Source: Alistipes sp.
GTDB lineage: Bacteria; Bacillota; Clostridia; Oscillospirales; Ruminococcaceae
Reading direction: 5' to 3'
Assembly (NCBI GenBank): GCA_023667265.1
Contig: JAMPAJ010000001.1
Location: 1,293,151 to 1,357,150 of the forward strand
Length of the DNA stretch: 64,000 bases
This document shows positions 5,052-61,470 of this stretch, piece by piece. The position numbers and the translations under genes are program-made. The notes under the pieces were generated by a model. That model searched no databases and was not told where the DNA came from. It worked only from the letters and a program-made list of their open reading frames with translations. The number at the start of each line of letters is the position of its first letter. The first letter of the stretch is position 1.

Positions 5052-5095
5052 GAGGCTACCTTGATTTGATATTGTAAACGACGTTCTTTTTCAGC

Positions 5096-6559: not shown

Positions 6560-6588
6560 TTTACATCATGAAAATAATGTGGTAAAAT
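6560..6588 (+). promoter_or_regulatory. Promoter of the sensor GGDEF gene
   Basis: TTTACA (6560-6565), 17-bp spacer, TAAAAT (6583-6588). Confidence 0.65.
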
Positions 6589-6631
6589 AGATATAAGAAA
6601 AGGAATCGTTTGTTTTTATCAGGGAGGTGAA

Positions 6632-8551: not shown

Positions 8552-8561
8552 CTAAAACCTT

Positions 8562-8589
8562 GCCGCCTGAATATCCGGGCGGCTTTTTT
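8562..8589 (+). terminator. Intrinsic terminator of the GGDEF gene
   Basis: GCCGCC/GGCGGC hairpin followed by six T. Confidence 0.85.
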
Positions 8590-8620
8590 CTGGAAAATTT
8601 TAAAAAATCCGTTTTTGCTA

Positions 8621-8649
8621 TTGTAATTCTGACGAAAAAATGATATAAT
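8621..8649 (+). promoter_or_regulatory. Promoter of the rlmB operon
   Basis: TTGTAA (8621-8626), 17-bp spacer, TATAAT (8644-8649). Confidence 0.7.
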
Positions 8650-8698
8650 GTAGAGTGAAGCATCATGTTTCTTCTAAGAGCAACTAAGGAGTCATAAA

Positions 8699-9499
8699 AT
8701 GGAAAGAGAAATAAAAAATAACAGAAAAAAAGAGCAGGAAAGGGATTCCGGAGAAAATATAATCTGCGGACGCAACCCAGTCATAGAGGCTCTTAAATCC
8801 GAAGCGAATCTCGATACTATCTACATAGACGGAAACGGCGGAAGTCTCGGCATTATCCGCAGACTTGCCAAGGAAAAAGGCATTCCCGTGAAGGACGTCC
8901 GGGATGAGAAGCTGTCGAAAATGTCCGGCGGAGCTTCTCATCAGGGAGTCGTCGCAGTCGGCGCCTGCGCGGAATATGTGTCCGTTGAGGACATTCTTGC
9001 CGTTTCGGAAAAAAAGGGAACCAAGCCTTTTATCATCATCTGCGACGAGATAGAAGATCCCCACAATCTGGGCGCGATCATCCGTACCGCGGAGACCTCC
9101 GGAGCAGACGGGATAATCGTTCCGAAACGTCACAGCGCCGGACTTAATGCAACTGTTTTCAAAACATCTGCCGGAGCTGCAAGCTATGTGCCCGTCGCAC
9201 GCGTTTCAAACCTTGCATCAGCAATTGATAAGCTGAAAAAAGCCGGCGTATGGATATACGGCACAGACGCCTCCGGAAGCGAATATACAAAAACAGACCT
9301 TACAGGAAGCTGCGGTCTCGTTATCGGCTCGGAGGGCTTCGGTATAAGTCGTCTCATCCGGGAAAAGTGCGATTTTATGATAAAGCTGCCTATGCTTGGA
9401 AAAATTAATTCACTGAACGCCTCTGTTGCAGCAGGAATTTTTATGTATGAGATACTGCGGCAGCGCAATGCGGAAAGCGGGGGTGAGAAAAATGCCTGA
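8699..9499 (+). CDS. rlmB: 23S rRNA (guanosine-2'-O-)-methyltransferase RlmB (SpoU/TrmH family)
   Basis: A 266-residue SPOUT methyltransferase. After a charged N-terminus comes the substrate-binding domain (IICGRNPVIEAL, about 21-32). The SAM-binding trefoil knot follows, with motif 1 DPHNLGAIIRTAETSG, motif 2 LVIGSEGFGISR and motif 3 IKLPMLGKINSLNASVAAGI. The family methylates a guanosine in the 23S rRNA peptidyl-transferase region; the exact site is inferred. It is first in an operon and overlaps the next gene by 8 bp. Confidence 0.9.
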   Translation: MEREIKNNRKKEQERDSGENIICGRNPVIEALKSEANLDTIYIDGNGGSLGIIRRLAKEKGIPVKDVRDEKLSKMSGGASHQGVVAVGACAEYVSVEDILAVSEKKGTKPFIIICDEIEDPHNLGAIIRTAETSGADGIIVPKRHSAGLNATVFKTSAGAASYVPVARVSNLASAIDKLKKAGVWIYGTDASGSEYTKTDLTGSCGLVIGSEGFGISRLIREKCDFMIKLPMLGKINSLNASVAAGIFMYEILRQRNAESGGEKNA

Positions 9500-11993
9500 C
9501 AGCAAGCTCTCACTTGAAGATATACTCAACGAATATAAGCCGAATCCCGATGATACGTCGTCTGCTCATGTCGGAAGAGCTGACGCAAGAAAAATAATCA
9601 TTTCCGCCTCTGCCGATGAAAAAAAGAAGGAAGCTCCGAAGCCGGCTGCTGTTTCCCATGAGAAAAAGGAGCTTTTCGACAGTGGGGAAACGACCTTTGC
9701 CAACAATGAAATAATCCCGTCAGAGCGTTCCGTTAAAAAAGCGGCATTTGCAGATGCAGAGGGAATAAATCTTGTTTACTCCGATACGGCAGAAGCTACG
9801 TCCATGCCGCCGGAGGGTGCGCCGAAGATCCGGAGAATGGCTGACTCCACAAGAGCCAAAGAGATCGAAAAGGAAAAAAAGAAAAAGAAAAAACGAAGTC
9901 ATACCCGGGAAAAAAGAACCTACTCAAAAGAAACTCCCGAGGGCGAATATATGTACACTCCCCCGGAGTTTACCAAAAAGAAAAAGACCAGGATCGAGAT
10001 AATCAACGAGGCTGAAGATCCGGAAAACAGAAAGTTCCTGACGGATATCGTGCCGTCGAGAGAGGCTGCCAACGCCGCAAGACCTGTTTCTCCCACTCCT
10101 CGCAGCGAGACAACTAAACTGGATCTCAGCGGTGCAGAAAAAATCGACGAGAAATCCCTTGACGTCCATGTTCCCAGAAGCGCGGAGGAATACACTCACC
10201 TGCAAACAAAAAGCAAACGCACTAAGCGTATCGTGGATTTCAATTACTACGGCGATGTCCAGGATGTCGGACGTGATATTTACGAACTGAAAAATACTAT
10301 TTCAAACCGCGCAGCTGTGCTGTTTCTGACAGCCTTTCTCAGTCTTTACATGACCATTTGCAGCAGCTTTGACCTGCCAATACTCAGCTTTCTCAGCATC
10401 AACAGCATTACGACCTATCTGCTTGCGCACCTGATTTTAGGCTTGCTCTCTATCGCATATTCTATTCCTGTCATCACCAAAGGCTTCCGGAATCTTGTCA
10501 AGTTCAGAGCTGACGGAGACTCGATGACGGCGATAACCGCAGTAAGCTGCCTGATAGCGCTTCTTACGGCTTTCGGTGCAAAAGATATGGCTCAGGCGGA
10601 AACTATCCATATATATATGCCGGTAGGAATTTTGGCGCTGCTCTTCAATGCGGTGGGAAAGCTGCTGATAATGAAAAGGGCGAAGCGGAATTTCAACTTC
10701 GTCTCCAAAAACTTCGACAGACACGGCGTCGTCTACGTCAAGGATGAGGAACGTGCAGAACGGCTTACCAGGGGCACTCTGGGAGATTTTCCCATTCTCG
10801 CCGCCATGAGACCTACCGATTATCTGACCGATTTTCTCAGATACACCTACTCGTCAGATATTACCGACAGCTTCTGCCGACGCGCAGCGCCGATCTGTCT
10901 TATTTTCTCAGCAGTTACGGCTCTTTCTGTAACCTTTATCCGCATGAGAACTTTCTTTGGCGGAGCTGCCGCAGCCTTCGGGTTCTCGATTTTCAGTATG
11001 CTGATATGCGCAAGCTCATGTATCGCTATTCCATTTGCCGCCAATATTCCGCTTGAAAAGGTCTCAAAGCAGACCTTAAAAAACAAAGGCATCCTGCTGG
11101 GCTATCAGAGTGTTGACGATCTTTATGACACCAACTCAGTTCTCGCAGAGGCAGACAAGCTCTTCCCGGCAGGAAGCATCAAGCTGGGAGGTATAAAAGT
11201 GTTCTCCAACACCAAGCCCGACGAAGCGTTTCTTGACGCCGCAAGCCTCGCCTACCACGGAAAAAGCCTTATGACTCAGCTTTTTGCCGATATCATCGAG
11301 GACAAGGAGGAGCTGCTTTACAAAATCGACAACTTCTCCTGTGAGGAGGATATGGGTATATGCGGCTGGATAAAGAACCGCCGCGTACTCCTGGGCAGCC
11401 GCGAGCTTATGATCGCTCACAACATCGAGGGACTTCCCACAAAATCCCAGGAATCCGACTATGCTCTGGGACGTGATGCAGTATACCTGTCCATTTCCGG
11501 AAACCTTGCGGCAATGTTTGTCGTTGACGTTTCCGGCGCAAGATCGGTAAAGATCTGGGCGGAAAGGCTGACTAAGCGGAAGATCTGCATTATCGTCAAA
11601 ACAGTTGACCCGTTTATAACTCAGAACCGGATAGCCGGCGCGCTGGGAATACCTGCCGGAATGGTAAAGGTCCTCCCGCACAAGCTCCACCAGGATTTTG
11701 ACATCGAAACGCGAAAATCCGAGAGCATGAGTGCTTCAATGGCGTGTACTGGAAAATTCAGCTCCATGGCACAGCTTATTCTGGGAATCAAGAAAATACA
11801 CGCCTCAGCCATAACTGCACTGATTTTCCAGACAGCGTCAATTCTGCTGGGCTTCGGGCTTTCCATGATGCTGATACTGTCAAAGGCCTTTGAATCTGAT
11901 TATATGTATATGTCGGCTGCCGCAATGATAATATATAATCTTATCTGCACGGCACTTACCTGCTTTGCCGCAGGAGCGAAAAAGCTGTCCTGA
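9492..11993 (+). CDS. Membrane protein related to P1B-type ATPases but without the catalytic motifs (pseudoenzyme)
   Basis: An 833-residue protein starting at the ATG at 9492 (GGGGGTGAG upstream, 8-bp overlap with rlmB). The first 280 residues are charged and Lys-rich, with no recognised domain. The rest follows the order of a heavy-metal P-type ATPase: paired membrane spans with a KGFRNLVKF-like link, a cytoplasmic A-like segment, and a span with C506ASSC510 where CPC would be. Next comes IPLEKVSKQTLKNKGILL, like the region before the phosphorylation site. The DKTGT box is reduced to D555-K-L-F-P, an N-domain-like NRRVLLGSRELM remains, and TGES, TGD and GDGxND are gone. It cannot work as an ordinary pump. 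The function is unknown. Confidence 0.75.
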   Translation: MPDSKLSLEDILNEYKPNPDDTSSAHVGRADARKIIISASADEKKKEAPKPAAVSHEKKELFDSGETTFANNEIIPSERSVKKAAFADAEGINLVYSDTAEATSMPPEGAPKIRRMADSTRAKEIEKEKKKKKKRSHTREKRTYSKETPEGEYMYTPPEFTKKKKTRIEIINEAEDPENRKFLTDIVPSREAANAARPVSPTPRSETTKLDLSGAEKIDEKSLDVHVPRSAEEYTHLQTKSKRTKRIVDFNYYGDVQDVGRDIYELKNTISNRAAVLFLTAFLSLYMTICSSFDLPILSFLSINSITTYLLAHLILGLLSIAYSIPVITKGFRNLVKFRADGDSMTAITAVSCLIALLTAFGAKDMAQAETIHIYMPVGILALLFNAVGKLLIMKRAKRNFNFVSKNFDRHGVVYVKDEERAERLTRGTLGDFPILAAMRPTDYLTDFLRYTYSSDITDSFCRRAAPICLIFSAVTALSVTFIRMRTFFGGAAAAFGFSIFSMLICASSCIAIPFAANIPLEKVSKQTLKNKGILLGYQSVDDLYDTNSVLAEADKLFPAGSIKLGGIKVFSNTKPDEAFLDAASLAYHGKSLMTQLFADIIEDKEELLYKIDNFSCEEDMGICGWIKNRRVLLGSRELMIAHNIEGLPTKSQESDYALGRDAVYLSISGNLAAMFVVDVSGARSVKIWAERLTKRKICIIVKTVDPFITQNRIAGALGIPAGMVKVLPHKLHQDFDIETRKSESMSASMACTGKFSSMAQLILGIKKIHASAITALIFQTASILLGFGLSMMLILSKAFESDYMYMSAAAMIIYNLICTALTCFAAGAKKLS

Positions 11994-36866: not shown

Positions 36867-37529
36867 TCACACATCTCCCGTAACCTCAACGGCACGCACA
36901 GTCACGCGGCTCTGTCCGCCAAGAGTACAGGTAAACAGCGTCAGATCCCAGTTTTCACCAGAACCAAAATCCATTGCATCAATATCCTTGCCGTTTATTT
37001 CCTCTGTCCGGACAATCTCATAGGTTCGCACAGTTCCGTTTGCCGCAGTAAAATATATAAATTCACCGCCGCTGTATTCCTTCAATCTGCCGAAATGCGA
37101 GTTATAGTTATGCGCCGCAATAATGAGATCTCCGCCCTCGAGCGTTCCCTTATAGCGGCAGGGAGAAATTTTCAGATTCGGATAGCTCCACTGGCTCATG
37201 ACCGGCAGCTCTATGCCCAGATCAGGCAGCGTAATATACCCGATATAGCCATTTTCGTCCACCATCATCGTTTCGTCCTCCACAGGAACGTCCTGAACAG
37301 TCGTCTCTGTTTCATACTCCGAAAACAGGTCGTTTTCCGGAAAAGTAAATGCCGGTTGAGCCGTAGTGACAGGCTCCGGAATCGAATCCTTCAGCTTTGT
37401 CAGAATCTCCTGCGCAGCCTCTCCGCTCTTTTTATTCTGCTGTGAGTTGTAGAAAACAAGGGACAACGCCGCGATAAGCAGCATTGCCCCGAGAATTATA
37501 CAACACGCTCCGTGTTTTTTATTCATCAT
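36867..37529 (-). CDS. Sortase (dedicated to the adjacent LPQTG protein)
   Basis: A 220-residue protein: an N-terminal span (CCIILGAMLLIAALSLVFY), a Thr/Glu-rich linker, then a sortase barrel (about 90-220). Catalytic residues: His in IIAAHNYNSHFG, Cys in LFTCTLGG and Arg in QSRVTVRA. It cuts the sorting motif and joins the protein to peptidoglycan. The compact form without a C-terminal span resembles class D/B-like sortases rather than the pilin-polymerising enzyme at 49949. It overlaps the LPQTG gene by 4 bp. Confidence 0.9.
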   Translation of the reverse strand: MMNKKHGACCIILGAMLLIAALSLVFYNSQQNKKSGEAAQEILTKLKDSIPEPVTTAQPAFTFPENDLFSEYETETTVQDVPVEDETMMVDENGYIGYITLPDLGIELPVMSQWSYPNLKISPCRYKGTLEGGDLIIAAHNYNSHFGRLKEYSGGEFIYFTAANGTVRTYEIVRTEEINGKDIDAMDFGSGENWDLTLFTCTLGGQSRVTVRAVEVTGDV

Positions 37530-38629
37530 TTATCTTCTTTCTTGCCGCTGATAACTATTCTCGAACCAACTCCCACGAGGATAAGTCCCAGGAGCGCCAT
37601 TACAGGAACAGGCCACCAAAGCTGTCCTGTCTGAGGCAGCTTATTTTCGCTTGTGGTCGTAACTGCCGGCTTCTGAGTCGCTGTTACAGTTACAGACGAA
37701 TCTGGGATCGCAGTAACAACAGAAGACGACGTCGTCTCCTCATCACCGCTTGTCGGAGCTTTCGCAGTCGAAACCGTGGTAACGTCGCTGTCGTTTGCCA
37801 CGCTTACTTCGGTTGTCACAGTAGTCGAAGAAGTGGTCTCCGTAGCCGACGAGGTCGGTCCATTATAGGTATTCACTACTACATACTGTCTGCCGTCGTC
37901 TCTGTAAACAACAGTGCAGCCATCGGGAATTTCCTTCTCTAAAATACGCCAGTCGCTGGAAACATCTGCCTCCCATGAATACTTCCAGCCATTCTCGACA
38001 TTAAGCTCAACAGTATCGTACAGCTCCAGATCAGCATAAATCTCAACAAGTATCCTTGTTGGCTTAACAGGCATTGCCTGTTCGTTTTCCCAAACCTTCA
38101 TAACCTGATAGCGTTCATAGTAGCCGTCCAGAGTACGGATAGAAGTCATTTTAGTATAAACAGTCATCTCGGCCGCCTGAGAACTATCCATTATGACAAT
38201 GGACGGAGACGGCTTGAAGGTTTTATCCCCCGATTTAAATTTCTGGGAAGCTACAAGATAAACGCCGTCACGGACATCAGTGAAAGTTATCTCGCCATTG
38301 GAATCAGTCATTTTCCTGGCATACTCTTCTTTCTTGAGCAAAGCGATCGTCTCAAGAGCGGAAGCGGCATCAGAAAGAGCAGAAGCAGAGTAATCGCCGA
38401 AGGAAACAGGACTGTCCGCAAACTGATCCTCCAGGGTTATCTCCGAACCGTCATAAGAACCAATACGGTATATCCACCACATCATATTCGAGGGAATATT
38501 ATTATTGGCCTTGCATATCAGCTTTAGAGTTCCTGAGCCTTCCTCTGCGGAAACAGTCACAAAGCATCCAAGACAAACAGTCAATATCACACACAGAGCG
38601 CACATGACCGAGCATATTTTCCTGCGCAT
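37526..38629 (-). CDS. LPQTG cell-wall-anchored protein with Cna_B/SpaA-like domains
   Basis: A 367-residue surface protein from the ATG at 38629 (AAGGTGAG upstream). Signal peptide about 1-29; a first SpaA-like domain (about 30-150, with GEITFTDVRDGVYLVASQ); a Cna_B-like domain (about 150-260, with VENGWKYSWEADVSSDW and VVNTYNGP). A Thr/Ser-rich wall-spanning stretch follows, then LPQTG (about 331-335), a span and a basic tail. It is anchored by the adjacent sortase. It may be an adhesin or a simple pilin; no pilin lysine motif stands out. Confidence 0.88.
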   Translation of the reverse strand: MRRKICSVMCALCVILTVCLGCFVTVSAEEGSGTLKLICKANNNIPSNMMWWIYRIGSYDGSEITLEDQFADSPVSFGDYSASALSDAASALETIALLKKEEYARKMTDSNGEITFTDVRDGVYLVASQKFKSGDKTFKPSPSIVIMDSSQAAEMTVYTKMTSIRTLDGYYERYQVMKVWENEQAMPVKPTRILVEIYADLELYDTVELNVENGWKYSWEADVSSDWRILEKEIPDGCTVVYRDDGRQYVVVNTYNGPTSSATETTSSTTVTTEVSVANDSDVTTVSTAKAPTSGDEETTSSSVVTAIPDSSVTVTATQKPAVTTTSENKLPQTGQLWWPVPVMALLGLILVGVGSRIVISGKKEDK

Positions 38630-38664
38630 ACCGCTCACCTTCACCTTCCAAAAACAAATTATGG

Positions 38665-49913: not shown

Positions 49914-49950
49914 AAGCTGCTGCAAGTAAAATTTGCAGCAGCTTATTTTT
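49914..49950. terminator. Bidirectional terminator between the symporter and the pilus operon
   Basis: AAGCTGCTGCAA/TTGCAGCAGCTT hairpin with T-rich flanks, between convergent genes. Confidence 0.85.
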
Positions 49951-50821
49951 ATGTATCGTCTCTTACCGGGATCTTCGTGTAGTCCAGCGTTCTGGTGCGT
50001 TTCAGCCTGCCGCTGATGATCCAGTAAATAATCAGCAGGAGTACAAAAAACGTGAAAATGATCGGAACGACCAGCATCGGGTCAACCTGTGACGCGTCGG
50101 GATTTACCCTGATATTCTTCACATCGTCGTACACCGTCTCTATTCTGTGCGAGCGCAGGAGCAGACGATGAGTATTTACTCCATAGGGCGTGCAGGTCAT
50201 AAGCGTGACATAGTCGCCGCCGGGAATGATCTCGATCTTATCGACCTCCTCCGGCTTGACCGTCAGAATTTTTTCCACCTCGTAGGTGTACACCTGGTCG
50301 AGAATGGTTATTGTAAAGGTGTCGCCCTCTACCATTTTGTCCAGATCGGTGAAAAGCTTTGCGGAGGGCAGTCCCCGGTGTGCCGAAATTACCGCGTGGG
50401 TGTCGCTTCCGCCTACGGGAAAGGACGAGCCCTGCAAGTGTCCGGCGGCAACGTTCAGCACCTCTTCGCTTGTGCCGTGGTAGATTGAAAACTCAGCGTG
50501 AATGACCGGAATAGTGATATAACCCATAATTCCTGTACCAGAGATGTTGAGAATATCCTCATATCCCGGAATCTGATCGTAGTTGACAAATGGCGCGTAC
50601 AGCCCGTTAAGCTGCTGATTGTACTTCTGGGCTTCGGCAATAAGCCGCTCGGTCTCTCCGGTGTCCATTTGGGCTACAGTTTCGTTATATGTGGTAATAA
50701 CTTTACTGGAAACACGTTCGTTCCACCAGTTGCTTATGGTCGGGTACAGCATTACGGAGAGCCCTACGAGGAGTATGATGATTAAAATAATCGTTGATAT
50801 TTTGCCTGATTTTTTTCTCAT
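49949..50821 (-). CDS. Class C sortase (pilin polymerase)
   Basis: A 290-residue protein with two spans: N-terminal (ISTIILIIILLVGLSVMLY) and C-terminal (MLVVPIIFTFFVLLLIIYWI). The sortase core between has His in VISAHRGLP, Cys in TLMTCTPYG and Arg in THRLLLRSHR. The C-terminal span and THRLLLRS pattern mark class C enzymes, which link pilins covalently through a lysine. Last gene of the pilus operon, 59 bp after the major pilin. Confidence 0.95.
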   Translation of the reverse strand: MRKKSGKISTIILIIILLVGLSVMLYPTISNWWNERVSSKVITTYNETVAQMDTGETERLIAEAQKYNQQLNGLYAPFVNYDQIPGYEDILNISGTGIMGYITIPVIHAEFSIYHGTSEEVLNVAAGHLQGSSFPVGGSDTHAVISAHRGLPSAKLFTDLDKMVEGDTFTITILDQVYTYEVEKILTVKPEEVDKIEIIPGGDYVTLMTCTPYGVNTHRLLLRSHRIETVYDDVKNIRVNPDASQVDPMLVVPIIFTFFVLLLIIYWIISGRLKRTRTLDYTKIPVRDDT

Positions 50822-50880: not shown

Positions 50881-52401
50881 TTATTCTGCGTCTTTGCTCA
50901 TTCTCTTCTTTGTGATGAGGAAGATTCCTCCTACCGCTACCATAGCGCCGCCGACGATGTAGAACAGTGTTGTACCCATGCCGCCTGTGCTGGGGAGGGT
51001 TGAACCCTTTTCATTAACAATAGTATTGTCTAAATTACTATTTTCCATATCAAGAGTAACATTCGCACTTGCTCCTGCATCTGTTTCCTCATGTTTTGTA
51101 GCAGAAATTACTACGATCTTATCAGCACATTTGTTGTATCCTGCAGGAACTGTCGTCTCTTTCAGTACATACTTACCTGCATCCAAACCAATGATATTGA
51201 ATTTACCTGTGTCACTAGCAGAAAACATCTCCACCGCGGTCTCACCACTCTTAATAGGACGATAATTATCTCCATCCTTAATCAAACCAATTTCAGTTGC
51301 GCCCGTGATGTCATACAGTTTAAATCCTGCACCACCCAATGGAGCATTTTTATCGCTTCCGTCAACCTTAGTGTTATCTACACCATATGTAAACACCCAA
51401 ACGGTATCATCAGGTGTTTTTCCAAGTTCTCCGCCACCAGAGACATTCGGATTATTTGAATACTCCAAATTAACCTTATTCAAGTTTTCAGTTGTTCCGC
51501 TTTTCTTGTTGATATATGCCTTCTCATTCAGATGAGCATTGTAAACAACCTCTATCGTTGCACCGTCGGTAAGATCCTTATCATACTGTAATATGTCATC
51601 AATTGTAAGCGACCACTTACCATCACTCACCTCTGTTTTCGTATATCCTGTTTCAGGAACATCAATTGCACCAACTTTAACTGATTCTATACTCTCGAAT
51701 GTTATGCCTTCTGACATCTCATCATTAAACACTACTTTGTATGTGTCATAATAAGCATAATCTGCGTCAGCAGGAACAGTTGCCGTAAGTTTAAACTGGA
51801 AGGACTCATTAATAGCGTGATCCGCTGTCTCACCCCAACCGTTGTTATCACCTTCCGTAACCGAATCGTCGTTATCATAGACCTCCTTATCAACGGTAGG
51901 CTTAGCGCTCTTTGGAGTCGCAGTTGCATCACCTACAACTCTAAGGATAAAGGATGTGTACGCATCATCTACACCGCTCAATGAATTATCTCTGTCTTTT
52001 ACAAGGTAGTAACCTGGTACAAGACCACTTACTGCATATTTCTTTGTTGTAGTATCGTATTGAAGTGTAGCCGTAGGTTTTGCAGAAAGGCGAAGACCCT
52101 TTGCCCACGTTAACGCATTGTCACCTGTGATATTTTTAGATGCTTCCGTAGCATCATCGCCAACTTTATTAGACTCCTGACCTGAACCCCACTTAATATT
52201 TGACAGAACCTTTGCGCCGTCTTCCTCAGATAAATCACCAATGAAAATCTGATACACATCATATGTATGACCCGTTACCTCATTATCAACTGTAATGGAA
52301 TAAGTTTCCTCCGGTGCAGCAAACGAAGCCATAGGTGCGATAGCGCAAGCTGAGAGTGTGAGGGCAGCAACCATGGCTGCAAGTTTCTTAAAGTTTTTCA
52401 T
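50881..52401 (-). CDS. Major pilin, LPSTG-anchored, isopeptide-forming
   Basis: A 506-residue exported protein (signal about 1-29). It has an N-terminal domain, a pilin motif-like TVDKEVYDND (about 168-177) with the candidate polymerisation lysine, and a middle fimbrial domain with KLTATVPADADYAYYDTY. A C-terminal SpaA-like domain carries the E-box YVLKETTVPAGYN (about 415-428). LPSTG (about 468-472), a span and a basic tail complete the sorting signal. The class C sortase gene follows, and the giant tip protein gene precedes. AAGGAGAG lies before the ATG. Confidence 0.93.
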   Translation of the reverse strand: MKNFKKLAAMVAALTLSACAIAPMASFAAPEETYSITVDNEVTGHTYDVYQIFIGDLSEEDGAKVLSNIKWGSGQESNKVGDDATEASKNITGDNALTWAKGLRLSAKPTATLQYDTTTKKYAVSGLVPGYYLVKDRDNSLSGVDDAYTSFILRVVGDATATPKSAKPTVDKEVYDNDDSVTEGDNNGWGETADHAINESFQFKLTATVPADADYAYYDTYKVVFNDEMSEGITFESIESVKVGAIDVPETGYTKTEVSDGKWSLTIDDILQYDKDLTDGATIEVVYNAHLNEKAYINKKSGTTENLNKVNLEYSNNPNVSGGGELGKTPDDTVWVFTYGVDNTKVDGSDKNAPLGGAGFKLYDITGATEIGLIKDGDNYRPIKSGETAVEMFSASDTGKFNIIGLDAGKYVLKETTVPAGYNKCADKIVVISATKHEETDAGASANVTLDMENSNLDNTIVNEKGSTLPSTGGMGTTLFYIVGGAMVAVGGIFLITKKRMSKDAE

Positions 52402-52483: not shown

Positions 52484-55400
52484 TTATTTCGTGGCACGTC
52501 TTCTGCGCCTTCTTATGAGATAGTAACCAGCGGCGCTGCACATGACAGCCATGCCAGCTGCGTAGAAACCTTTCGTTCCCACTCCGCCCGCTGAGGGAAG
52601 CTCTCCCTGGGTTTCGCCTACGTTTTCATTTTTGACTGAAAGCTTGTTATCAGTTTCACCTGGATTTTCCTTCAAAGGCTTACCGTTGACATATTCCCTA
52701 GGAATATAAACAGCGCCATTTCCTGTGAGCTGCTTTACAGGCTCTCCGCTCTCCTTATCTACCTCAATAATATAGTAGTAATAGAGTCTGCCCTCGCCGT
52801 TGGTAAGCGGAAGGTCTTTAATCGTCTTTGACCAATCCTCGCCTTTTGTCACTTCAATAGCTTCGCCAACCCTTTCCCAGCTGTCTTGCTTTTCAACAAT
52901 AACCGGCAGCTTGTGTACATTTACGATAAATTCGGCTTTAGTTTTGTCAGAATCAGTTGCAACTACCGTTATTCTCTCGTTTTCTCCTGATGTCAGAACA
53001 CCTGTATTCGAATCAATCGTGGCTTTCGCATCCTCTTCCTTTATCGACCAAATTACATTTCCGACATTATTATTAACTGTCAATGTCTGCGTCGAATCCG
53101 GGTTCATGTCAGCCATACCAACGATTTCCAACGGCTCAAGAACGCTGATTGCCACTTCCGCTTCGCCGATCTTCACGCCGTTACGAGTCACAGTCAGAAC
53201 CGTTTCGCCAACCGTTTTAGCAGTAATAGTATCACCATTGATCTCAGCAACATTGGTATCTCCAATCGTAAGGCTTATGTCGCTCGGTTCTGTTGTGATT
53301 TCCACTGTCTTACCAACATGAAGCCGTATTGGACTCGGAGCTACAACAATCGGGTTTACGTTGAATGTGTATGCGCCCTGCTTGTCGCCGCTCGTGCCCT
53401 TGATCTTGATTTCACCAGATTTTATGACCGTGAAATACCAATTTCCATCGTCGCCCTTTGAGAATGTGCCGTTTCCGGTGTTCTCCCAGCTGATTTCATT
53501 TTCTGCATCAGTTATATCAAGCTTGATTTTATCACCGGGGTAGATATTTTCGGTCTTGTCAGGGGTGATTGTGAATTTTGGAACATCTACGTAATGGAGA
53601 CGGATTTCTTTAATCTTACCATTAAAGTCCCAGTTCTGGATTCTAAATCTTAAATCTGTGATTGTTATTGGATCAAAATTCTCATTTTTCAGATCATTAA
53701 AATTTTTCGTATCACCTTGACCATTTGTCTGATACCAAGAATCTGACTCATCATTATCTGCGATATCAGGTCTGTTGATAGCAATTCCGCAGCCAAAGTT
53801 TCCGCTGCCCTCGTATATTATTTCAATACTTGTGACATTTTCCCACTCACCATGCAGCCTAAACGTGCTTACATCACGATCTTTCACTACAACATACCAC
53901 TGATTCTTCGGTTTAATATTGATCGTAGCCGCAGCGGTCTGAGAGTTATTTGCTATTCTTGTCGCTGTAATGGTTACGGAAGAATTTGCGCCATTCAAAG
54001 CCTTAACTTCACAGGATTTACCGTCAGCACTTGGCGTAAGCTCAACATTATTACTGTCAGCCGTCCAATTAGCCGGAGCGTTAGCATTAAGCGTTACTGT
54101 TTCGTTAATTGGCAACTCAACTTTGGATTGGTTTAACCTAAAACTGTTGTCATCTTCATAGTAGAAGCGGATATAATTTGGTGTATTCCAAATATAACCA
54201 AAACTCTCTATATTGTTATAGGACACATTGCTATTTCCCCATATTCTTGGATATACAAAATTACCATTGTCATTAATCGGCTCAAAAATTAATTTTCCAT
54301 TTTGATAACTATAACATGGATTCAAATTATCGTTGTCATTCCAATGAAAAATAGCATTATTTAACTTTAAAGCAATATATTCCGAACCATAATCCAGTTC
54401 TATTTTGATTATATTTTTTCCGGAAGTGTATTCGCTTATATCGATACATCCTGCATTTTGACCACCGAGGCTCATTCTTTGAAATACTTCAGTATTACAA
54501 TTATTGCTAAACTCTATATAACTATCCCCCGCATCCCTGATCGCCAGCGTTCTCATCACCATAGCTGCCGGAGTTTTTGCCAGGGTTTGCAAAGTTGCTT
54601 CGGAATGGTTTACAGCAAGTGAAGACTCTGTAGCTTCAGCTGGATAACCCCAGTAATATCCGGGTACAGTCCCTTTTTGAACATACTGCGTATTGACGCC
54701 GGTCTCTTCCGGAATCAAGTATGTCTGACCAGTTCTAAATGCCGCATAAAGTCCGGCTGCTGCACATACGAGTCCAGCATTATAGTCATCGGCAGGTTCA
54801 TTGACCTGATACATAGAACGGATGTCATCGTATCGTATCGAACTTTGCCAGCCTCCGACTAAACCTCCGATAAGCATATACAGATCGTCATAGTCATCAA
54901 TAACACTTTTATCGTCATTGCTTATCATCTGCTCACTCTTTCCAGAAGTAGCTCTGAAATGAGGATTTTTTACTGAATTGCTCGCGAAATTAGAGACAAA
55001 GCACTTATTGTAATCATTGTCGCCAAGAATTACTTTCATCTGAGCCTGCGCCCAATTTTTTAATTTTTCCTTCTGTTCAGGAGTAGCATTAGGAAATGTC
55101 CATGCAATCAAAGCGGTCGTCTGATAAGCAACATTATGTCTCATCTGTCCCCAACCGCCTGATTCGCCTCCGAATACATAGCCATCGGTCTGGATTTTAC
55201 CATTGTTGACTATAGAATTAACCACATTCGCCTGATTTTCAGTTTTAATGTTTTTAGCATTTGCCACTACCGCGGCTGTACCTACATCATTCCATGATAT
55301 GTTGACTGTACTAACTGAATCTCCTATTTCGTTAACTTTATTCTTATAAGCTGAATTACCTTCATTATCTTTGGTAGCAAGGTGCAACCAGACTGCCGCC

Positions 55401-58400
55401 CATTTTCTATCATCATCTGAATCAGACGAGCTATAATAACCTCCTTTACCGCCAACTTCCGACGGTTCAATGGTTTTACCTTTTACTGGGTTAGGATGCG
55501 CCTCAGCAAATGCGTACAATGCTTTTGCCATTTCAAGGTATTTATCGTATTTCGCCTTTGTCTCTTCATCATTTCCAGCAGCAGATCTATAATCGCCATT
55601 ATCTCTGTAATTCAAGTATGCAAGAGCAAGTGCTGCTGCATATTCAGCGGCAATATCGCCTCCGGCATTATTACCGGGATCCAGACAATACTCATTAGCC
55701 TGATTCAGTTTTCTATCCGCGCTGTTCGGATCATCATCCGTCCAGTAAAGCTGATACTTACGATATGCTGCTGAACCATACTCTCTGCCCTCGATCGTAC
55801 TGTCATGCTGTGTCTGCTCCTGTAACTCCGGAACGCCCCAGTAGTTATGGTCGATTTCGCCATTGCCCTTTTGATAGAGGATAGCGGTTATAGTTTTATC
55901 GCTTTCAAATTTATTTGCACTAAAACTACCGTCATCATACTTAGCAGTCTTCATAAAGAAGTCACAGAACTGCTCCAGAATAACCTGCATATGTGCCGTC
56001 TGACCAAGATCATTGAATGCGCCCTGGAACTCATAAGCGCCCCAGCCAAGCATCGACGCTGTGTATCCCTGCGGCAAACCAAACATTACATGGTCGCCTG
56101 CATCATGGAAACCACCGCTCCAAGCACCGTCTCCGGTCGTTCCGTCGTGGCAGTTGCTGCGCCAGCTATATGCACTGTTATCATCAACCTCGTTGCCGCA
56201 CATATTAGCGTCATAGAAGTAAAGTGAATACTGGAGAAGTCTTGCGTAGTCTTCCTGTGTATCTTCTGGAAGCTGATCTACAGGATATGGCAGATATTCA
56301 TCTGGAATTTCCGTTGTCCTGTAAAGCTGAAGATAAACGCTTTCAGGTTTCGTATCTCCTGTCGAATCCTCTGGCTCAGTCCACAGCTTGTTTAAAACAA
56401 GATCTGATACCTTTGGTTCATTTGCAATTGAAAGTGTCTCATCACCATTAGCTCCATTTGATAATTCGTCATCACTTTTATCGGTACTTATCTTCCAGCC
56501 TGCCGGGACATTGCTTTCTACGATCCTGTACTCTCTTCCCTTTAGAAGACCCGGAACGGTTGTTTTCCAGCCTTCTGATGCTGTAACAGTTACCGGTCTT
56601 AACTTTTCCCATGCCTCATCATTATTTTTGACCTGGAGCTGGAAGATCAGTGAATCCGGCTTTGGTATATTTTCGTTTGGATCGCCTATCCAGTCCTTCT
56701 TGACCTTTAAGCTGATCGGGTCAAGGGTATTTGTAACTACAAGTGTTCCGTCTGTATCCGTAGAATACGTAACCTTATAACCGTTTGCAGCAGGTTCTTC
56801 CTTGATGTAATAATAGTACTTCTGCCTATTCGTATCTCCAGGCTCTCCGGTTTTTGTCGGAAGATTTTCCCACTTGCTTCTCCACGAGTTTTCTGCACTG
56901 AGTTCAGCGGTCATCGGATTATCATCCTCATCACAAAAACGATCAGCCTCAGTAAGCTCTGACACATCTTCAATTGGCTCTGTTGTCTGATAGAGATATA
57001 CAGTTACCGGAGTTCTCATAGACGAGAAGTCGTCATCATTACTCCATCTCTTCTCAACCGGAATATCCTCAGTATCGCCTTTAAGCTTGTTTCTTACCTG
57101 TAAATTGCACTCGTCGTCTACCTTGAGATACTCAACAGGAGCAACGGTTGTGGTTGTTTCTTCAGGAGTAACTGCGGTGGTAGTTGTTGTGGCAACTGGT
57201 ATAGTAAACTTACCTTCAGGGTTATACAAATACATTGCGCCATTTGCAGCTCTTATAAAAATGTATTCAAATGTTGGATTGTTACCATTCCAGTCTTGGA
57301 ACTTAAATGTCGTTAAAATTGTTGGAGAATTATATTGATGTGAATATACTGAGGCTTCATTATTGCCATTATCCAGCGCATAATCATCAGCATAAAACTG
57401 CTGGAATTTCTGCTCAGTCTTAAACTCAATATACTCTATATTGGCAAGTTTATTATCCTTATCAATACGTTTTCCATCGAATGTTGCATAGTGAATATTA
57501 TTATCTGATAAATCTACGCCTAAAGGATAAGTTTTACCGGGCTCTCCAACATGAGTATTTTCATCATACGTTTCGGTTGAACCGCCTGACGAATCATCTG
57601 TTCCAGGAGCTAAAACCTTATCCTCTTCCACCACATACCCGGTCTTATCCGCGTTAAGCTTAACCGTAAACCACATTTTACCGGGAGCAATATACTCATC
57701 CGCAGCATCTGTGGGGGTGGGGCGCTTAGTTTCGTCAATGTAATACCTGCCAGGTTTCAGATAACCGTTTTCAATATACTTTGGCGTTGCAGACTCTTTT
57801 ATTATCCAATTGTCAATCGAAGTCTCTTCTCCGATAAAGTTTTTCCACTCAACGATAAGAGTTCCGTCCTGAGCGTGAAGCTCAAGAGTCGCTCCTTTTA
57901 ATTCAGTAGGATTATCCGGATCGGTTATATCCCATTTTGAAATTGTAGGCTTAGCACCGAGTATCCGCGTATCTTCCATTTCTATGGTACGATCGTCAAA
58001 CAAATTTAAAATTGTACACTGTGACTCGTCAGCCAGTTTTTCCATGCTGTCTGCGTACCAAATCTCCGTGTTTGATACTTTCTTGATATAGATATCCTCT
58101 GCCGGGTTATACAACGCCGGAGGAGTGTCTTCACGGATTATATAGATACCATTTTCAAGCTGCGTTACATCAATAGTATATCCAGAATTTCCAGCAGACG
58201 TCCAACTGTCAATAACATTTCCGCCGAGATCAAGCAGGCTTATATCAGCTCCGGAAACATACTGCTTTGAAACAGAATCATCAACCTTCTTGAAAAGCAC
58301 ACCGGGAGCATTTTCAAACTTAAGATTATATTCCGGAAGAGGCATTACCATCATGACATAAGTATCGAAGTAATACTTATTACCTTCCGAATCTATAATA

Positions 58401-60835
58401 CCGCCGTTCGTCTTATCGCTGTAGTCTGAACCAGTTGTGACAGAAACGATTCCAGATATTTTATTATTTGTTACATTCAATTCAAAAGCTTCGATCTCAG
58501 ACTCACTCTCATCCAAGATTCTTATTGTTCTTGTCTCAACTTTGTCTCCAGCATATTGATCGTTTATGTCAAAATTCCATTCAGCGATCTTAACATCAGC
58601 GTTACTGATGACAACAGTTGACTTGATATGCGTCGGATACGTACCTTCGCTGCCATTGCTGACCGTCTTTGATGTATCAACACTTTCAGTTATCACAACG
58701 TTATACGTATTATCAGTTTTAACATATCCCTCCGGAGCGCTGGTTTCTGAAATTGTATAGCTCTTTGTTACTGTTATATACTCTGGATCGCCGGTATCAT
58801 CTGCCTGCACGTCAGATTCAGCATCATCGCTATCATATGTCTGGTCAGCCTCTGCCTGAGAGTCAGGGACTGAGCTTTCCTGATCGTCTGTTTGTTCAGT
58901 TTCCTCATAGGCGACCGCATCCGGCTCTTCGCCAGTATCGGCTTCATCAGCCTGCACTTCCGGATCATCCTGAATATCAGCCTCATCATTTTGTTCATCC
59001 AGAACGTCAGATACAGGATCATCAGAAGTCTCTGCCGCAGTCGTTTCAGCAACTGTAGTAACTTCTGTAGTGACTACGGTTGTAACAGCCGCAGTGGTTA
59101 CTGTATAGGACGTTTTTCCCGAGAAATCAACTGCTGTAGGGAGCTGCGCATATTCCGTATCGCCGCCGCTTATCCACGAATATACTTCTCTTCCTGTGTC
59201 GTCGTCAGTTACTGAAAAAGACGCACCCGCCAGAGGCTGACCAGTTGTATCTCCCTCGACCAGCTTATCGACAGGAACAGAATATCCTGTTGTAAGAGGA
59301 ATGATCTGGCTGTCACCGCGGTAAGGTCTATAACCAAATTCCAGGTAACCCTCAAAGGACTTAGCGATCAGAGCGCCTGAAAGATGTCCGGAGGCTTCAG
59401 CAGTATTATTTGCGTCTTTTTTTCCGGATGTAACATCTGCGAATGGTGCGAAGACCGTTCCGTTAAAGTTCGTCTGGATAGAACCTTGAGTTGCCTCATA
59501 GAAGTTGTATAATATCTTCTCCGATGCAGGATGATTGTTAGTTCTATCATCATTTGAAGAAATGTCTTCGCCATTAATATAGGTAGGTATCTTTCCTCCG
59601 CCGTCTCCGATATTAAACTCGCTTCCGCCGCAATTAACAACAAGATTGCACAGGGGATAAATTTTCTCTTCATCACGTTCATTTTTCCTTGTTGTTACCG
59701 GAACGTTCTCAAAGCGAACACTTCCGTACTTCCATTCAGGAATGTCAAAATATACAGTATCGCCGTCACGAGTTACTTCAGGACACGTTAGAACGAGCTC
59801 AGTACCATTTTCAGTTACAGTACCATTCGATCTGACCTGGCTAAGCTCCTTAGAACGCTTGCGCAGATAATTAAATGCTTCCGTAAAATCAATGAGACCG
59901 CCCTCCGGCTGTCGATAAATCTGAGCTAACTCATTTACCTGACCGAGATACGCATGATTCGGATCATTTCCGTTTCCGTCATTACAATCGCCAGGATAAT
60001 CATGCGCATGAGATGAAGCATACGGAACATTATTGTTCGTACCATCTTCATAATGTGAAGAATTTTCAATGTCTCCTACAACCAGGCGCTTGAACAGATC
60101 ATCTTCCGGCTTATAGAAGAATGTATAACTATATTGACTGCCGCGATTTACAGTATGTAAACCGGAATCTGCATCATAACTGCTCGCACCGCCAAATCTA
60201 ATATTTCCGCTGCCCGTACTGGCAGTGTTGACGTTAACTATTTTTCCGCCTACGATCGCGTGAGCGTAACCGCTGTTGCCATCATAGCTTATTGTGTTAT
60301 TCAGTGATCTCGCTGCACCATAATCACCCGAACCTATCTGGTAATTCCACTCATTACCTGCCTGAACAAAGGTGATGTCTCCGCCTACGGCAACTCGACC
60401 CTCTGCGTCAGCAGCCTTCGGATTAAAATCGTTCTCAATAAATGCACAGAAGTCATGAGCGATTCCCAAGAAATACCGGTTTTTCGCCTCCTCAATAACT
60501 TCTGCTGCATTAAGACCTTCAGCCCACGGAATGCTATTGCCAACAAGAAGAGTCACTTCCGGTAAATATTGAGGACTGTAAACCTTGCCGTCCACTTCAT
60601 TTCCGTCAGCTTTTGCAGCATTTTCAAGACTCGGACCAGTTTCGCTGTACAAACTCATCTGTTCAGTCTGCAGTGCACTATCCGGCTCATTCGTCATACT
60701 GATCGCCGGCATAATAAGGCTCATAGGAACAGCAAAGGTAACAATAATTGACAGCGTCAGAACAACGGCGAGATACTTTTTCCGTTTCTCATGATCTTTC
60801 AAATATTTGCTGATTAAATTCTGTAATCCTCTCAA
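52484..60835 (-). CDS. Giant pilus tip protein with a choice-of-anchor-A domain, SpaA/Cna_B domains and an embedded GH9 cellulase, LPSAG-anchored
   Basis: A 2783-residue protein with TTG start (GGAGGG upstream). Hydrophobic signal about 20-45; choice-of-anchor-A adhesin domain about 120-500 (AHDFCAFIENDFNP). SpaA-like domains follow about 515-1250, two of them interrupted, then Cna_B domains at about 1258 and 1374. A third Cna_B begins at about 1480 (LNKLWTEPEDS...VYLQLYRTTEIPDE), is broken near 1515, and resumes near 2645 (SWERVGEAIEV...YYYYIIE). The insert holds a GH9 domain (about 1525-2035; D1578 and D1581 in HDAGDH, E2013 in VNEPADDYNAG), beta-rich modules about 2050-2420 and Big-type Ig repeats. 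LPSAG (about 2745), a span and an Arg-rich tail close it. Likely a cellulose-active pilus tip or wall protein. Confidence 0.93.
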   Translation of the reverse strand: MRGLQNLISKYLKDHEKRKKYLAVVLTLSIIVTFAVPMSLIMPAISMTNEPDSALQTEQMSLYSETGPSLENAAKADGNEVDGKVYSPQYLPEVTLLVGNSIPWAEGLNAAEVIEEAKNRYFLGIAHDFCAFIENDFNPKAADAEGRVAVGGDITFVQAGNEWNYQIGSGDYGAARSLNNTISYDGNSGYAHAIVGGKIVNVNTASTGSGNIRFGGASSYDADSGLHTVNRGSQYSYTFFYKPEDDLFKRLVVGDIENSSHYEDGTNNNVPYASSHAHDYPGDCNDGNGNDPNHAYLGQVNELAQIYRQPEGGLIDFTEAFNYLRKRSKELSQVRSNGTVTENGTELVLTCPEVTRDGDTVYFDIPEWKYGSVRFENVPVTTRKNERDEEKIYPLCNLVVNCGGSEFNIGDGGGKIPTYINGEDISSNDDRTNNHPASEKILYNFYEATQGSIQTNFNGTVFAPFADVTSGKKDANNTAEASGHLSGALIAKSFEGYLEFGYRPYRGDSQIIPLTTGYSVPVDKLVEGDTTGQPLAGASFSVTDDDTGREVYSWISGGDTEYAQLPTAVDFSGKTSYTVTTAAVTTVVTTEVTTVAETTAAETSDDPVSDVLDEQNDEADIQDDPEVQADEADTGEEPDAVAYEETEQTDDQESSVPDSQAEADQTYDSDDAESDVQADDTGDPEYITVTKSYTISETSAPEGYVKTDNTYNVVITESVDTSKTVSNGSEGTYPTHIKSTVVISNADVKIAEWNFDINDQYAGDKVETRTIRILDESESEIEAFELNVTNNKISGIVSVTTGSDYSDKTNGGIIDSEGNKYYFDTYVMMVMPLPEYNLKFENAPGVLFKKVDDSVSKQYVSGADISLLDLGGNVIDSWTSAGNSGYTIDVTQLENGIYIIREDTPPALYNPAEDIYIKKVSNTEIWYADSMEKLADESQCTILNLFDDRTIEMEDTRILGAKPTISKWDITDPDNPTELKGATLELHAQDGTLIVEWKNFIGEETSIDNWIIKESATPKYIENGYLKPGRYYIDETKRPTPTDAADEYIAPGKMWFTVKLNADKTGYVVEEDKVLAPGTDDSSGGSTETYDENTHVGEPGKTYPLGVDLSDNNIHYATFDGKRIDKDNKLANIEYIEFKTEQKFQQFYADDYALDNGNNEASVYSHQYNSPTILTTFKFQDWNGNNPTFEYIFIRAANGAMYLYNPEGKFTIPVATTTTTAVTPEETTTTVAPVEYLKVDDECNLQVRNKLKGDTEDIPVEKRWSNDDDFSSMRTPVTVYLYQTTEPIEDVSELTEADRFCDEDDNPMTAELSAENSWRSKWENLPTKTGEPGDTNRQKYYYYIKEEPAANGYKVTYSTDTDGTLVVTNTLDPISLKVKKDWIGDPNENIPKPDSLIFQLQVKNNDEAWEKLRPVTVTASEGWKTTVPGLLKGREYRIVESNVPAGWKISTDKSDDELSNGANGDETLSIANEPKVSDLVLNKLWTEPEDSTGDTKPESVYLQLYRTTEIPDEYLPYPVDQLPEDTQEDYARLLQYSLYFYDANMCGNEVDDNSAYSWRSNCHDGTTGDGAWSGGFHDAGDHVMFGLPQGYTASMLGWGAYEFQGAFNDLGQTAHMQVILEQFCDFFMKTAKYDDGSFSANKFESDKTITAILYQKGNGEIDHNYWGVPELQEQTQHDSTIEGREYGSAAYRKYQLYWTDDDPNSADRKLNQANEYCLDPGNNAGGDIAAEYAAALALAYLNYRDNGDYRSAAGNDEETKAKYDKYLEMAKALYAFAEAHPNPVKGKTIEPSEVGGKGGYYSSSDSDDDRKWAAVWLHLATKDNEGNSAYKNKVNEIGDSVSTVNISWNDVGTAAVVANAKNIKTENQANVVNSIVNNGKIQTDGYVFGGESGGWGQMRHNVAYQTTALIAWTFPNATPEQKEKLKNWAQAQMKVILGDNDYNKCFVSNFASNSVKNPHFRATSGKSEQMISNDDKSVIDDYDDLYMLIGGLVGGWQSSIRYDDIRSMYQVNEPADDYNAGLVCAAAGLYAAFRTGQTYLIPEETGVNTQYVQKGTVPGYYWGYPAEATESSLAVNHSEATLQTLAKTPAAMVMRTLAIRDAGDSYIEFSNNCNTEVFQRMSLGGQNAGCIDISEYTSGKNIIKIELDYGSEYIALKLNNAIFHWNDNDNLNPCYSYQNGKLIFEPINDNGNFVYPRIWGNSNVSYNNIESFGYIWNTPNYIRFYYEDDNSFRLNQSKVELPINETVTLNANAPANWTADSNNVELTPSADGKSCEVKALNGANSSVTITATRIANNSQTAAATINIKPKNQWYVVVKDRDVSTFRLHGEWENVTSIEIIYEGSGNFGCGIAINRPDIADNDESDSWYQTNGQGDTKNFNDLKNENFDPITITDLRFRIQNWDFNGKIKEIRLHYVDVPKFTITPDKTENIYPGDKIKLDITDAENEISWENTGNGTFSKGDDGNWYFTVIKSGEIKIKGTSGDKQGAYTFNVNPIVVAPSPIRLHVGKTVEITTEPSDISLTIGDTNVAEINGDTITAKTVGETVLTVTRNGVKIGEAEVAISVLEPLEIVGMADMNPDSTQTLTVNNNVGNVIWSIKEEDAKATIDSNTGVLTSGENERITVVATDSDKTKAEFIVNVHKLPVIVEKQDSWERVGEAIEVTKGEDWSKTIKDLPLTNGEGRLYYYYIIEVDKESGEPVKQLTGNGAVYIPREYVNGKPLKENPGETDNKLSVKNENVGETQGELPSAGGVGTKGFYAAGMAVMCSAAGYYLIRRRRRRATK

Positions 60836-60876: not shown

Positions 60877-61470
60877 TCAGACAGCCCCGATGCTTTCAAA
60901 CGGCCATATCCGGAAAATAACCTTTCCGATAACGTACTCGTCAGCAATACATCCGACTGTTGTCGAGCGGCTGTCGACTGAAACTGCGCGGTGGTCTCCC
61001 ATAACAAAAATCCTGTTATCGGGAACCTGGTACGGCAGTTCTATATCGCACTCTCCGAAAGCAAGCTCATTGACATAAGGCTCATCGAGCTTATTTCCGT
61101 TTACATAAACAGTTCCGTCTTCCTTTATGTCTATGTAATCTCCGGCAACGCCTATGACTCTTTTCAGCAGAATCCTGTTATTATAATAAAAAGCCACTAT
61201 ATCTCCCTGCTTGAAATTGCTCCGTTTCGAGCAAATGATAAGCTCATCATTCTGCATCGTAGGAGTCATACTTGTTCCCGTGACTCTTAAAACCGGGAGG
61301 AACAGCATAGAAACCAGAACCGCGATCGCAGCGACTACAAGAAGAGATGAGAGCGTACTTCTCATTATTCTTCCGAAGTTTCTGCGGTACTTTATCTGCT
61401 TCAGCTCCGATTCAAGCTGTTCTGCTGTAGGCAGAGAAGCTATAGGGCTATCCGTATCATTCATTATCAT
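60877..61470 (-). CDS. lepB: Signal peptidase I of the pilus operon
   Basis: A 197-residue type I signal peptidase with one N-terminal span (LLVVAAIAVLVSMLFLPVL). Catalytic Ser in VTGTSMTPTMQNDE (about 73) and Lys in RILLKRVIGVAGD (about 108), with VMGDHRAVSVDSR later. A dedicated signal peptidase is common in pilus operons and may process the pilins. It overlaps the coiled-coil gene by 14 bp and is 41 bp before the giant gene. Confidence 0.94.
   Translation of the reverse strand: MIMNDTDSPIASLPTAEQLESELKQIKYRRNFGRIMRSTLSSLLVVAAIAVLVSMLFLPVLRVTGTSMTPTMQNDELIICSKRSNFKQGDIVAFYYNNRILLKRVIGVAGDYIDIKEDGTVYVNGNKLDEPYVNELAFGECDIELPYQVPDNRIFVMGDHRAVSVDSRSTTVGCIADEYVIGKVIFRIWPFESIGAV

What the first reader, a model, noticed from the sequence alone, without database searches (positions are those of the whole stretch)
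52484..60835. A GH9 cellulase with intact catalytic residues built into a sortase-anchored pilus protein
Seen: the 2783-residue protein carries HDAGDH (D1578, D1581) and VNEPADDYNAG (E2013), the catalytic base and acid motifs of GH9. It also has an N-terminal choice-of-anchor-A domain, Cna_B/SpaA domains and a C-terminal LPSAG sorting signal. Established: the next genes are a major pilin with an LPSTG signal and a class C sortase, the standard set for covalent pili. Inference: the cellulase is displayed at a pilus tip or on the wall, giving fibre attachment and cutting in one object, different from dockerin-cohesin cellulosomes. I know of no described cellulase-tipped sortase pilus.
Basis: partly seen in the sequence, partly recalled or inferred. 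Interest (0 to 1): 0.92.

Follow-up and report, generated by a model that had tools for sequence, protein, structure and literature searches.

The report
Cellulase nested in a pilus adhesin
A gut Ruminococcus carries a giant surface protein, encoded in a pilus gene cluster, that has a cellulose-cutting enzyme nested inside one of its structural domains, which suggests a hair-like fibre that could hold plant material and cut it; this has not been shown in the laboratory.

Summary
ORF 52484-60835(-) is one open frame of 2783 aa with a full-length GH9 domain (Pfam E=1.2e-74, residues 1530-2025), catalytic D1578, D1581 and E2013, an N-terminal choice-of-anchor-A domain, SpaA/Cna_B repeats and an LPSAG sorting signal. 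It lies between signal peptidase I and LPSTG-pilin plus class C sortase genes.

Not in the finding: (1) the GH9 plus about 600 residues of accessory modules appears inserted in a loop of the last Cna_B domain. Joined halves outscored all shuffled controls in 14 of 14 proteins tested, and the Lys-Glu-Asn isopeptide triad survives across the split in 15 of 15 (here K1483, E2691, N2736). (2) It is a Ruminococcus family, including R. flavefaciens FD-1; its 21 GH9 domains in the tree form one clade. (3) In 3 of 11 relatives the gene is away from the pilin; one such genome has a pilus operon elsewhere without an adhesin gene.

Best reading: an enzyme-bearing adhesin, probably tip, of a sortase pilus, built like the split-domain tip pilins Spy0125 and RrgA but with a cellulase as insert, beside a conventional cellulosome. 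Tip location, isopeptide formation, cellulose binding and activity are inferred. Ten literature searches found no description.

The parts
60877..61470 (-). signal peptidase I gene, first gene of the operon; Ser67 and Lys103 at the places of the catalytic dyad (dyad recalled)
   Evidence: (TIGR02227 E=5.7e-37); same gene upstream in 19 of 30 relatives' loci
52484..60835 (-). GH9-bearing, sortase-anchored adhesin (2783 aa), putative pilus tip protein
60692..60835 (-). residues 1-48: hydrophobic N-terminal secretion signal of the kind shared by relatives (KGLQ..YLKDHEKRKKYLA..)
   Evidence: by inspection
59315..60469 (-). residues 123-507: choice-of-anchor-A / pAdhesive_15 (ice-binding-like) domain, putative adhesive head
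   Evidence: alignment A1
56402..59278 (-). residues 520-1478: stalk of SpaA and Cna_B domains with a Thr/acidic low-complexity linker
   Evidence: linker by inspection
56300..56401 (-). residues 1479-1512: N-terminal half of the split Cna_B domain, with K1483
54761..56248 (-). residues 1530-2025: GH9 catalytic domain, D1578, D1581, E2013
52916..54700 (-). residues 2046-2640: accessory beta/Ig-like modules (Big_2 in relatives); carbohydrate binding not established
52601..52915 (-). residues 2641-2745: C-terminal half of the split Cna_B domain, with E2691 and N2736
52487..52600 (-). residues 2746-2783: LPSAGGVGT.. sorting signal, hydrophobic stretch, RRRRRR tail
50881..52401 (-). major (backbone) pilin, 506 aa, LPSTG at 469; K164 in ATPKSAKPT is the candidate inter-pilin lysine
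   Evidence: (Lys column identical in 12 of 12 pilins)
49949..50821 (-). class C sortase, 290 aa, TLMTC motif with the active-site Cys210 (motif recalled); the only class C sortase over cut-off found in this genome
37526..38644 (-). candidate basal pilin: Cna_B protein with LPQTGQLWW sorting signal; a homologue directly follows the class C sortase in relatives
   Evidence: arrangement in L031, L032, L033 and L084, L085
36867..37529 (-). second sortase, beside the candidate basal pilin
   Evidence: 59% identical over 213 aa to the one after the basal pilin in L031

Best explanation
The protein is a cellulase-bearing adhesin of a sortase-assembled pilus in a cellulolytic gut Ruminococcus. Shown by sequence: a GH9 catalytic domain with its catalytic residues sits, with about 600 residues of accessory modules, inside a loop of the last Cna_B domain of a long stalked adhesin, in an operon with signal peptidase I, backbone pilin and class C sortase. 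Inferred, in order: the class C sortase cleaves the LPSAG signal and joins the adhesin to Lys164 of the first backbone pilin; shaft subunits are added below; a basal LPQTG pilin and a second sortase end the chain on the wall. The N-terminal choice-of-anchor-A domain is the distal head, and the cellulase hangs from the side of the stalk near the shaft. If the split Cna_B forms its isopeptide bond (K1483 to N2736, helped by E2691), the bond closes a loop with 1,252 residues between the two around the enzyme, so pulling force would pass through the bond and not through the enzyme. The likely role is contact-dependent holding and cutting of cellulose or related beta-glucan at a distance from the wall, beside the cell's conventional cellulosome.
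For: Full-length GH9 match with both catalytic motifs. In 21 GH9 domains of this family D1578 and D1581 are kept in 21 of 21 and E2013 in 19 of the 20 that reach it. One clade, support 99/98, in 97% of 200 bootstrap trees, beside other Ruminococcus GH9s. Split Cna_B: Pfam finds nothing in the N-half piece, 18.1 bits in a C-half piece, 26.2 bits (cut-off 22.3) in the joined halves; for relative G018 15.0 in its C-terminal stretch and 22.4 joined, just over the cut-off. With a local model from 16 intact Cna_B stretches the joined halves beat the C-half alone and all 20 shuffled-N-half controls in 14 of 14 complete proteins tested (two further complete ones, L055 and L057, were missed by my pattern and not tested). 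Lys, Glu and Asn columns identical in 15 of 15. Operon order signal peptidase, adhesin, pilin, class C sortase in 8 of 11 relatives with enough downstream sequence; only one class C sortase over cut-off in this 96.3% complete genome, the one here. The adhesin's sorting signal shares the GGxG pattern of the backbone pilin, not the LPQTGQLWW of the candidate basal pilin. Precedents read as passages: CnaA and CnaB folds tolerate domain insertions, with RrgA and Spy0125 as examples (PMC12617251); RrgA and GBS104 have split D1/D2 domains around the inserted head (PMC7893114).
Against: Three of 11 relatives have the adhesin away from pilin genes. One relative, L049 from horse faeces, has Gly for the acid Glu and Phe for the His of HxR, so a non-catalytic version probably exists; L064 has Gln for that His, and L060 and L068 have Gln for H1663. 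R. flavefaciens FD-1 carries the GH9 in circularly permuted order. The accessory modules matched no carbohydrate-binding family, and what the head binds is unknown. The pilin stays below the cut-off of the SpaH/EbpB major-pilin model and lacks a YPK motif (motif recalled).
Confidence: 0.6

Rival explanations
1. Wall-anchored cellulase-adhesin, not part of a pilus. The protein is fixed straight to peptidoglycan by the second or a housekeeping sortase and only shares an operon with the pilus genes.
For: GH9 adhesin genes without neighbouring pilin in L048, L060 and L064; wall-anchored LPXTA cellulases, one of them GH9, are described in Bacillus cellulosilyticus, which appears to have no pilin genes (PMC3617157, passages).
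Against: In 8 of 11 relatives the gene lies between signal peptidase and pilin; its sorting signal resembles that of the pilin; the two unlinked genomes searched (G062, G111) still have pilin and a class C sortase on another contig, in G062 without an adhesin gene between signal peptidase and pilin.
Confidence: 0.26
2. The GH9 domain works mainly as a cellulose- or glucan-binding head (lectin-like use of an enzyme fold), with hydrolysis weak or unimportant.
For: L049 has lost catalytic Glu and the HxR His yet keeps the domain; split domains in other adhesins present ligand-binding domains (PMC12077191, passages).
Against: Catalytic Asp pair kept in 21 of 21 and Glu in 19 of 20, although the rows are only 37-49% identical to the first over the aligned region.
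Confidence: 0.2
3. The two Cna_B halves are separate degenerate repeats, and the GH9 lies between them without nesting.
For: Each half alone is below the Pfam cut-off, so each could be a remnant; no structure is available.
Against: Joined halves score above all 20 shuffled controls in 14 of 14 and the Lys/Glu/Asn triad is kept in 15 of 15.
Confidence: 0.07

Closest known systems
Split-domain tip pilins Spy0125/Cpa (S. pyogenes), RrgA (S. pneumoniae), GBS104 (S. agalactiae)
   Same: Large pilus adhesin with a functional domain inserted in a CnaA/CnaB fold (PMC12617251 and PMC7893114, passages)
   Different: Their inserts are adhesion domains; here the insert is a GH9 cellulase plus accessory modules, and a separate N-terminal head is also present
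Group A streptococcal FCT pili with SipA/LepA
   Same: Operon with signal-peptidase-like gene, tip, backbone and pilus sortase (PMC7900414, passages)
   Different: SipA lacks catalytic residues according to that review; here Ser and Lys are present. FCT-2, -3 and -4 use a class B sortase; here it is class C
Dockerin-bearing GH9 enzymes of Ruminococcus cellulosomes
   Same: Same GH9 family; two from the same genome with dockerin matches (L005, L007) lie among the nearest outside groups in the tree
   Different: No dockerin; joined to a stalk and sorting signal instead of by cohesin-dockerin contact
LPXTA wall-anchored cellulases of Bacillus cellulosilyticus
   Same: Sortase-anchored GH9/GH5 enzymes outside a cellulosome (PMC3617157, passages)
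   Different: Class D sortases, no pilin genes reported there; no nesting in a Cna_B domain is mentioned in the passages seen
RTX adhesins with split Ig-like domains (Aeromonas hydrophila AhLap)
   Same: Functional domain projected from a split Ig-like domain (PMC12077191, passages)
   Different: Ligand-binding, not enzymatic; type I secretion, no sortase (the last recalled)

Membership tests
Glycoside hydrolase family 9 | Full-length match to the family profile | tested here: met
   PF00759 profile 1-443 of 444, E=1.2e-74
Glycoside hydrolase family 9 | Catalytic Asp pair and acid Glu | tested here: met
   D1578, D1581, E2013 align with two solved cellulases and with other Ruminococcus GH9s
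Glycoside hydrolase family 9 | Hydrolysis of beta-1,4-glucan | not testable with these tools
   needs purified protein
Sortase-assembled (class C) pilus | Class C sortase beside a backbone pilin | tested here: met
   NF033745 263.6 bits (cut-off 160); RrgB-type domain and LPSTG; the SpaH/EbpB whole-protein model is below its cut-off
Sortase-assembled (class C) pilus | Backbone lysine for inter-pilin bond | tested here: inconclusive
   A Lys before the RrgB-type domain is identical in 12 of 12 pilins, but the sequence around it is not a YPK motif (motif recalled)
Sortase-assembled (class C) pilus | Covalent ladder / visible pili | not testable with these tools
   needs cells
Tip (ancillary 1) pilin | Large adhesin gene in the operon with sorting signal | tested here: met
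   but unlinked in 3 of 11 relatives
Tip (ancillary 1) pilin | Located at the pilus tip | not testable with these tools
   needs immunogold
Split-domain tip pilins (RrgA/Spy0125 type) | Functional domain inserted between isopeptide-forming residues of a CnaA/CnaB fold | tested here: met
   by sequence only; structure prediction was off
Cellulosomal enzyme | Dockerin module | tested here: not met
   No Pfam dockerin in the protein; none of the dockerin matches of this genome lies in its frame

The most novel reading that the evidence does not exclude
A natural enzyme-armed covalent pilus: a cellulase held as a side loop of 1,252 residues closed by one intramolecular isopeptide bond in the terminal Cna_B domain, so that the stalk can bear the load of a cell tethered to plant fibre while the enzyme stays unstrained and cuts at the contact site. 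It would be a further way for Ruminococcus to hold and degrade cellulose beside cellulosome and CttA-type binding proteins, ancient and conserved in part of the genus.
Probability: 0.4. Interest if true: 0.88.

Novelty: new variant of a known kind. Interest (0 to 1): 0.74.

Why it matters
Sortase pili are known as adhesion fibres. A pilus adhesin with a conserved cellulase would make the fibre itself catalytic and would add a component to fibre attachment and breakdown in R. flavefaciens and its relatives, where the passages read here speak of the cellulosome, CttA and type IV pili. The split Cna_B gives a directly testable mechanical idea (enzyme outside the load path) and a natural template for mounting enzymes on covalent scaffolds.

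Tried and rejected
Frame error or chimeric assembly: rejected, relatives have complete frames of the same design. Chance motif hits: rejected, full-profile match. GH9 as a repeated insertion: not favoured, one clade. Limits of that tree: the 16 outside rows are 10 nearest hits from relatives and 6 GH9s of the own genome; L006, L008 and the tenth own GH9 are not in it as whole domains, four fragment rows were dropped before it, and L048's GH9 was not in it. Carbohydrate-binding module after the GH9: searched with Pfam and against solved structures; only Ig-like matches and weak ones (Big_2 in relatives; intimin 1.1e-6; a glucanase chain 6e-4), so not claimed. Structure prediction to test the split domain: switched off. 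Is the family wider than Ruminococcus? In 394 genomes drawn from the order, at E 1e-40, the own genome and one of another genus in the same family matched; the latter's protein has no GH9 and no pilus genes were found in the 16 kb read around it. Literature: 10 searches listed no paper that by title or start of abstract describes a cellulase-bearing sortase pilus; of 11 papers I read passages only, of the others the listing; most subscription papers and preprints are not in the library. PMC9210967 was searched for the head domain and gave nothing useful. My pattern for N-halves missed L055 and L057, so these two are not among the 14; both are among the 15.

Confidence of the best explanation was lowered from 0.62 to 0.60 for it.

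Full report
What is there. On the minus strand the window holds signal peptidase I (60877-61470), the 2783-aa protein (52484-60835), an LPSTG pilin (50881-52401) and a class C sortase (49949-50821) in a row. The big protein has a hydrophobic N-terminus, a choice-of-anchor-A / pAdhesive_15 domain (123-507), SpaA and Cna_B stalk domains, a complete GH9 domain (1530-2025, E=1.2e-74), about 600 residues of accessory modules and an LPSAG sorting signal. Two solved GH9 cellulases, whose alignments were printed, cover both catalytic motifs. The finding's facts are confirmed.

The nesting. Just before the GH9 stands the start of a Cna_B domain (LVLNKLW...VYLQLYR), and just before the sorting signal its end (W..TIKDLP...YYYYIIE...LSVKN). 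Pfam gives no hit for a 61-residue piece with the first half, 18.1 bits for a C-terminal piece, and 26.2 bits (cut-off 22.3) for the joined halves; for relative G018, 15.0 (longer C-terminal stretch) and 22.4, just over the cut-off. A local model built from 16 intact Cna_B stretches of the same proteins scored joined halves above the C-half alone and above all 20 controls with a shuffled N-half in 14 of 14 complete proteins tested; two more complete ones were missed by my pattern. In an alignment of 15 proteins over the whole region the Lys and Trp of the first strand, the Glu of the YYYYIxE strand and the Asn of the last strand are identical in all 15. In the window the triad is K1483, E2691, N2736. 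In a 2025 survey, CnaB isopeptide bonds link first and last strands, Lys-Glu-Asn sets are tabulated, and both Cna folds are said to tolerate domain insertions in loops, with RrgA and Spy0125 named (PMC12617251, passages). If formed, the bond closes a loop with 1,252 residues between K1483 and N2736. Bond formation is inferred.

The family. A genome-contig scan with the head domain gave 30 loci, labelled Ruminococcus, Oscillospiraceae, Clostridia or (one) Lachnospira, including R. flavefaciens FD-1. Eighteen carry the GH9 in the same frame, one more (L048) in a second frame after a break. Of the other 11, nine run off a contig end without a GH9, one is a fragment (L071) and one complete frame lacks it (L069, with a different signal sequence and a PKTG-type end). 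Of 15 complete unbroken frames, 14 have GH9. In 125 genomes of the genus, 57 match the head model at 1e-15, and 25 of these have hits over 330 bits. The 21 GH9 domains of the family in the tree (18 of the loci, the window, G018 and G011) form one clade (99/98; 97% of 200 bootstrap trees) beside 16 other Ruminococcus GH9s. D1578 and D1581 are kept in 21 of 21, E2013 in 19 of the 20 that reach it; L049 has Gly there and Phe for the His of HxR, L064 has Gln for that His, L060 and L068 have Gln for H1663.

Linkage to the pilus. Signal peptidase I lies upstream in 19 of 30 loci. Of 11 GH9-bearing loci with at least 1.5 kb read downstream, 8 have pilin and class C sortase there (L042, L043, L046, L049, L050, L052, L055, L057), and 3 do not (L048, L060, L064); L047 and L062 show the start of a pilin at the locus end; L068 has no signal peptidase in 5.5 kb upstream and too little sequence downstream. 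By contig coordinates L060 lies in genome G062 and L064 in G111. Each of these two has one class C sortase over the cut-off. G062 has, on another contig, the row signal peptidase, pilin, class C sortase, LPQTG protein, second sortase, with no adhesin gene between the first two. G111 shows pilin, class C sortase, LPQTG protein and second sortase, but its contig ends about 0.4 kb upstream of the pilin frame, so what stood there cannot be told. So the adhesin can move away from the operon. In the window genome the LPQTG protein and second sortase lie 11 kb away at 36867-38644, 35% (261 aa) and 59% (213 aa) identical to those of relative G031. The window genome has one class C sortase over the cut-off, the one here. 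Twelve of 12 pilins share a Lys (K164 here) before the RrgB-type domain, the candidate inter-pilin lysine.

Setting. The own genome (2.57 Mb, 45 contigs, 96.3% complete) has 10 GH9 matches, 82 dockerin matches and 7 cohesin matches, 5 over cut-off. By frame length and position 7 of the 10 GH9 frames have a dockerin match; the window's does not. So this looks like a cellulosome producer with a separate, dockerin-free GH9.

Mechanism and rivals. The most likely reading is a pilus adhesin with a distal head, a long stalk and a cellulase on a side loop near the shaft; whether it sits at the tip is untested. Rivals are direct wall anchoring, a mainly binding role of the GH9, and non-nested Cna_B remnants; see the Rival explanations section.

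Novelty. Ten searches of the open library listed no paper on a cellulase-bearing sortase pilus (calls in Tried and rejected). Passages from papers on Ruminococcus cellulosomes and adhesion (PMC4081043, PMC2930009, PMC3672088, PMC11557425, PMC12484212) speak of ScaE sortase anchoring, CttA and type IV pili, not of this protein. Split-domain tip pilins are known, and wall-anchored cellulases are known; their combination in one conserved family is the new variant.

Noticed in passing
L057 (R. flavefaciens FD-1), residues about 1450-1908 of the 2470-aa protein: The GH9 domain is circularly permuted: the first helix region (AKLLQYSLYFYDANMCG..) stands after the end of the domain. In a search of 125 genus genomes, of the matches listed (the list was cut) only FD-1 itself spans this order. 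Real permutation or assembly fault is open.
   Followed up: partly
L049, residue aligned with window E2013: A relative from horse faeces has Gly for the catalytic Glu and Phe for the His of HxR while the rest of the GH9 domain is kept: probably a non-catalytic version.
   Followed up: partly
window 36867-38644 (-): A second sortase and an LPQTG Cna_B protein, whose relatives directly follow the class C sortase in other genomes, lie 11 kb from the pilus operon here.
   Followed up: yes
L048, 9806-18026: The adhesin frame is broken after 574 aa; a second frame of 2184 aa carries the GH9 and the anchor.
   Followed up: no
L089 (genome G334, another genus of the same family), 3656-11875 (-): A homologue of the head domain in a 2740-aa protein without GH9 or pilus genes nearby; a separate frame with a GH9 match starts about 2 kb away.
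   Followed up: no
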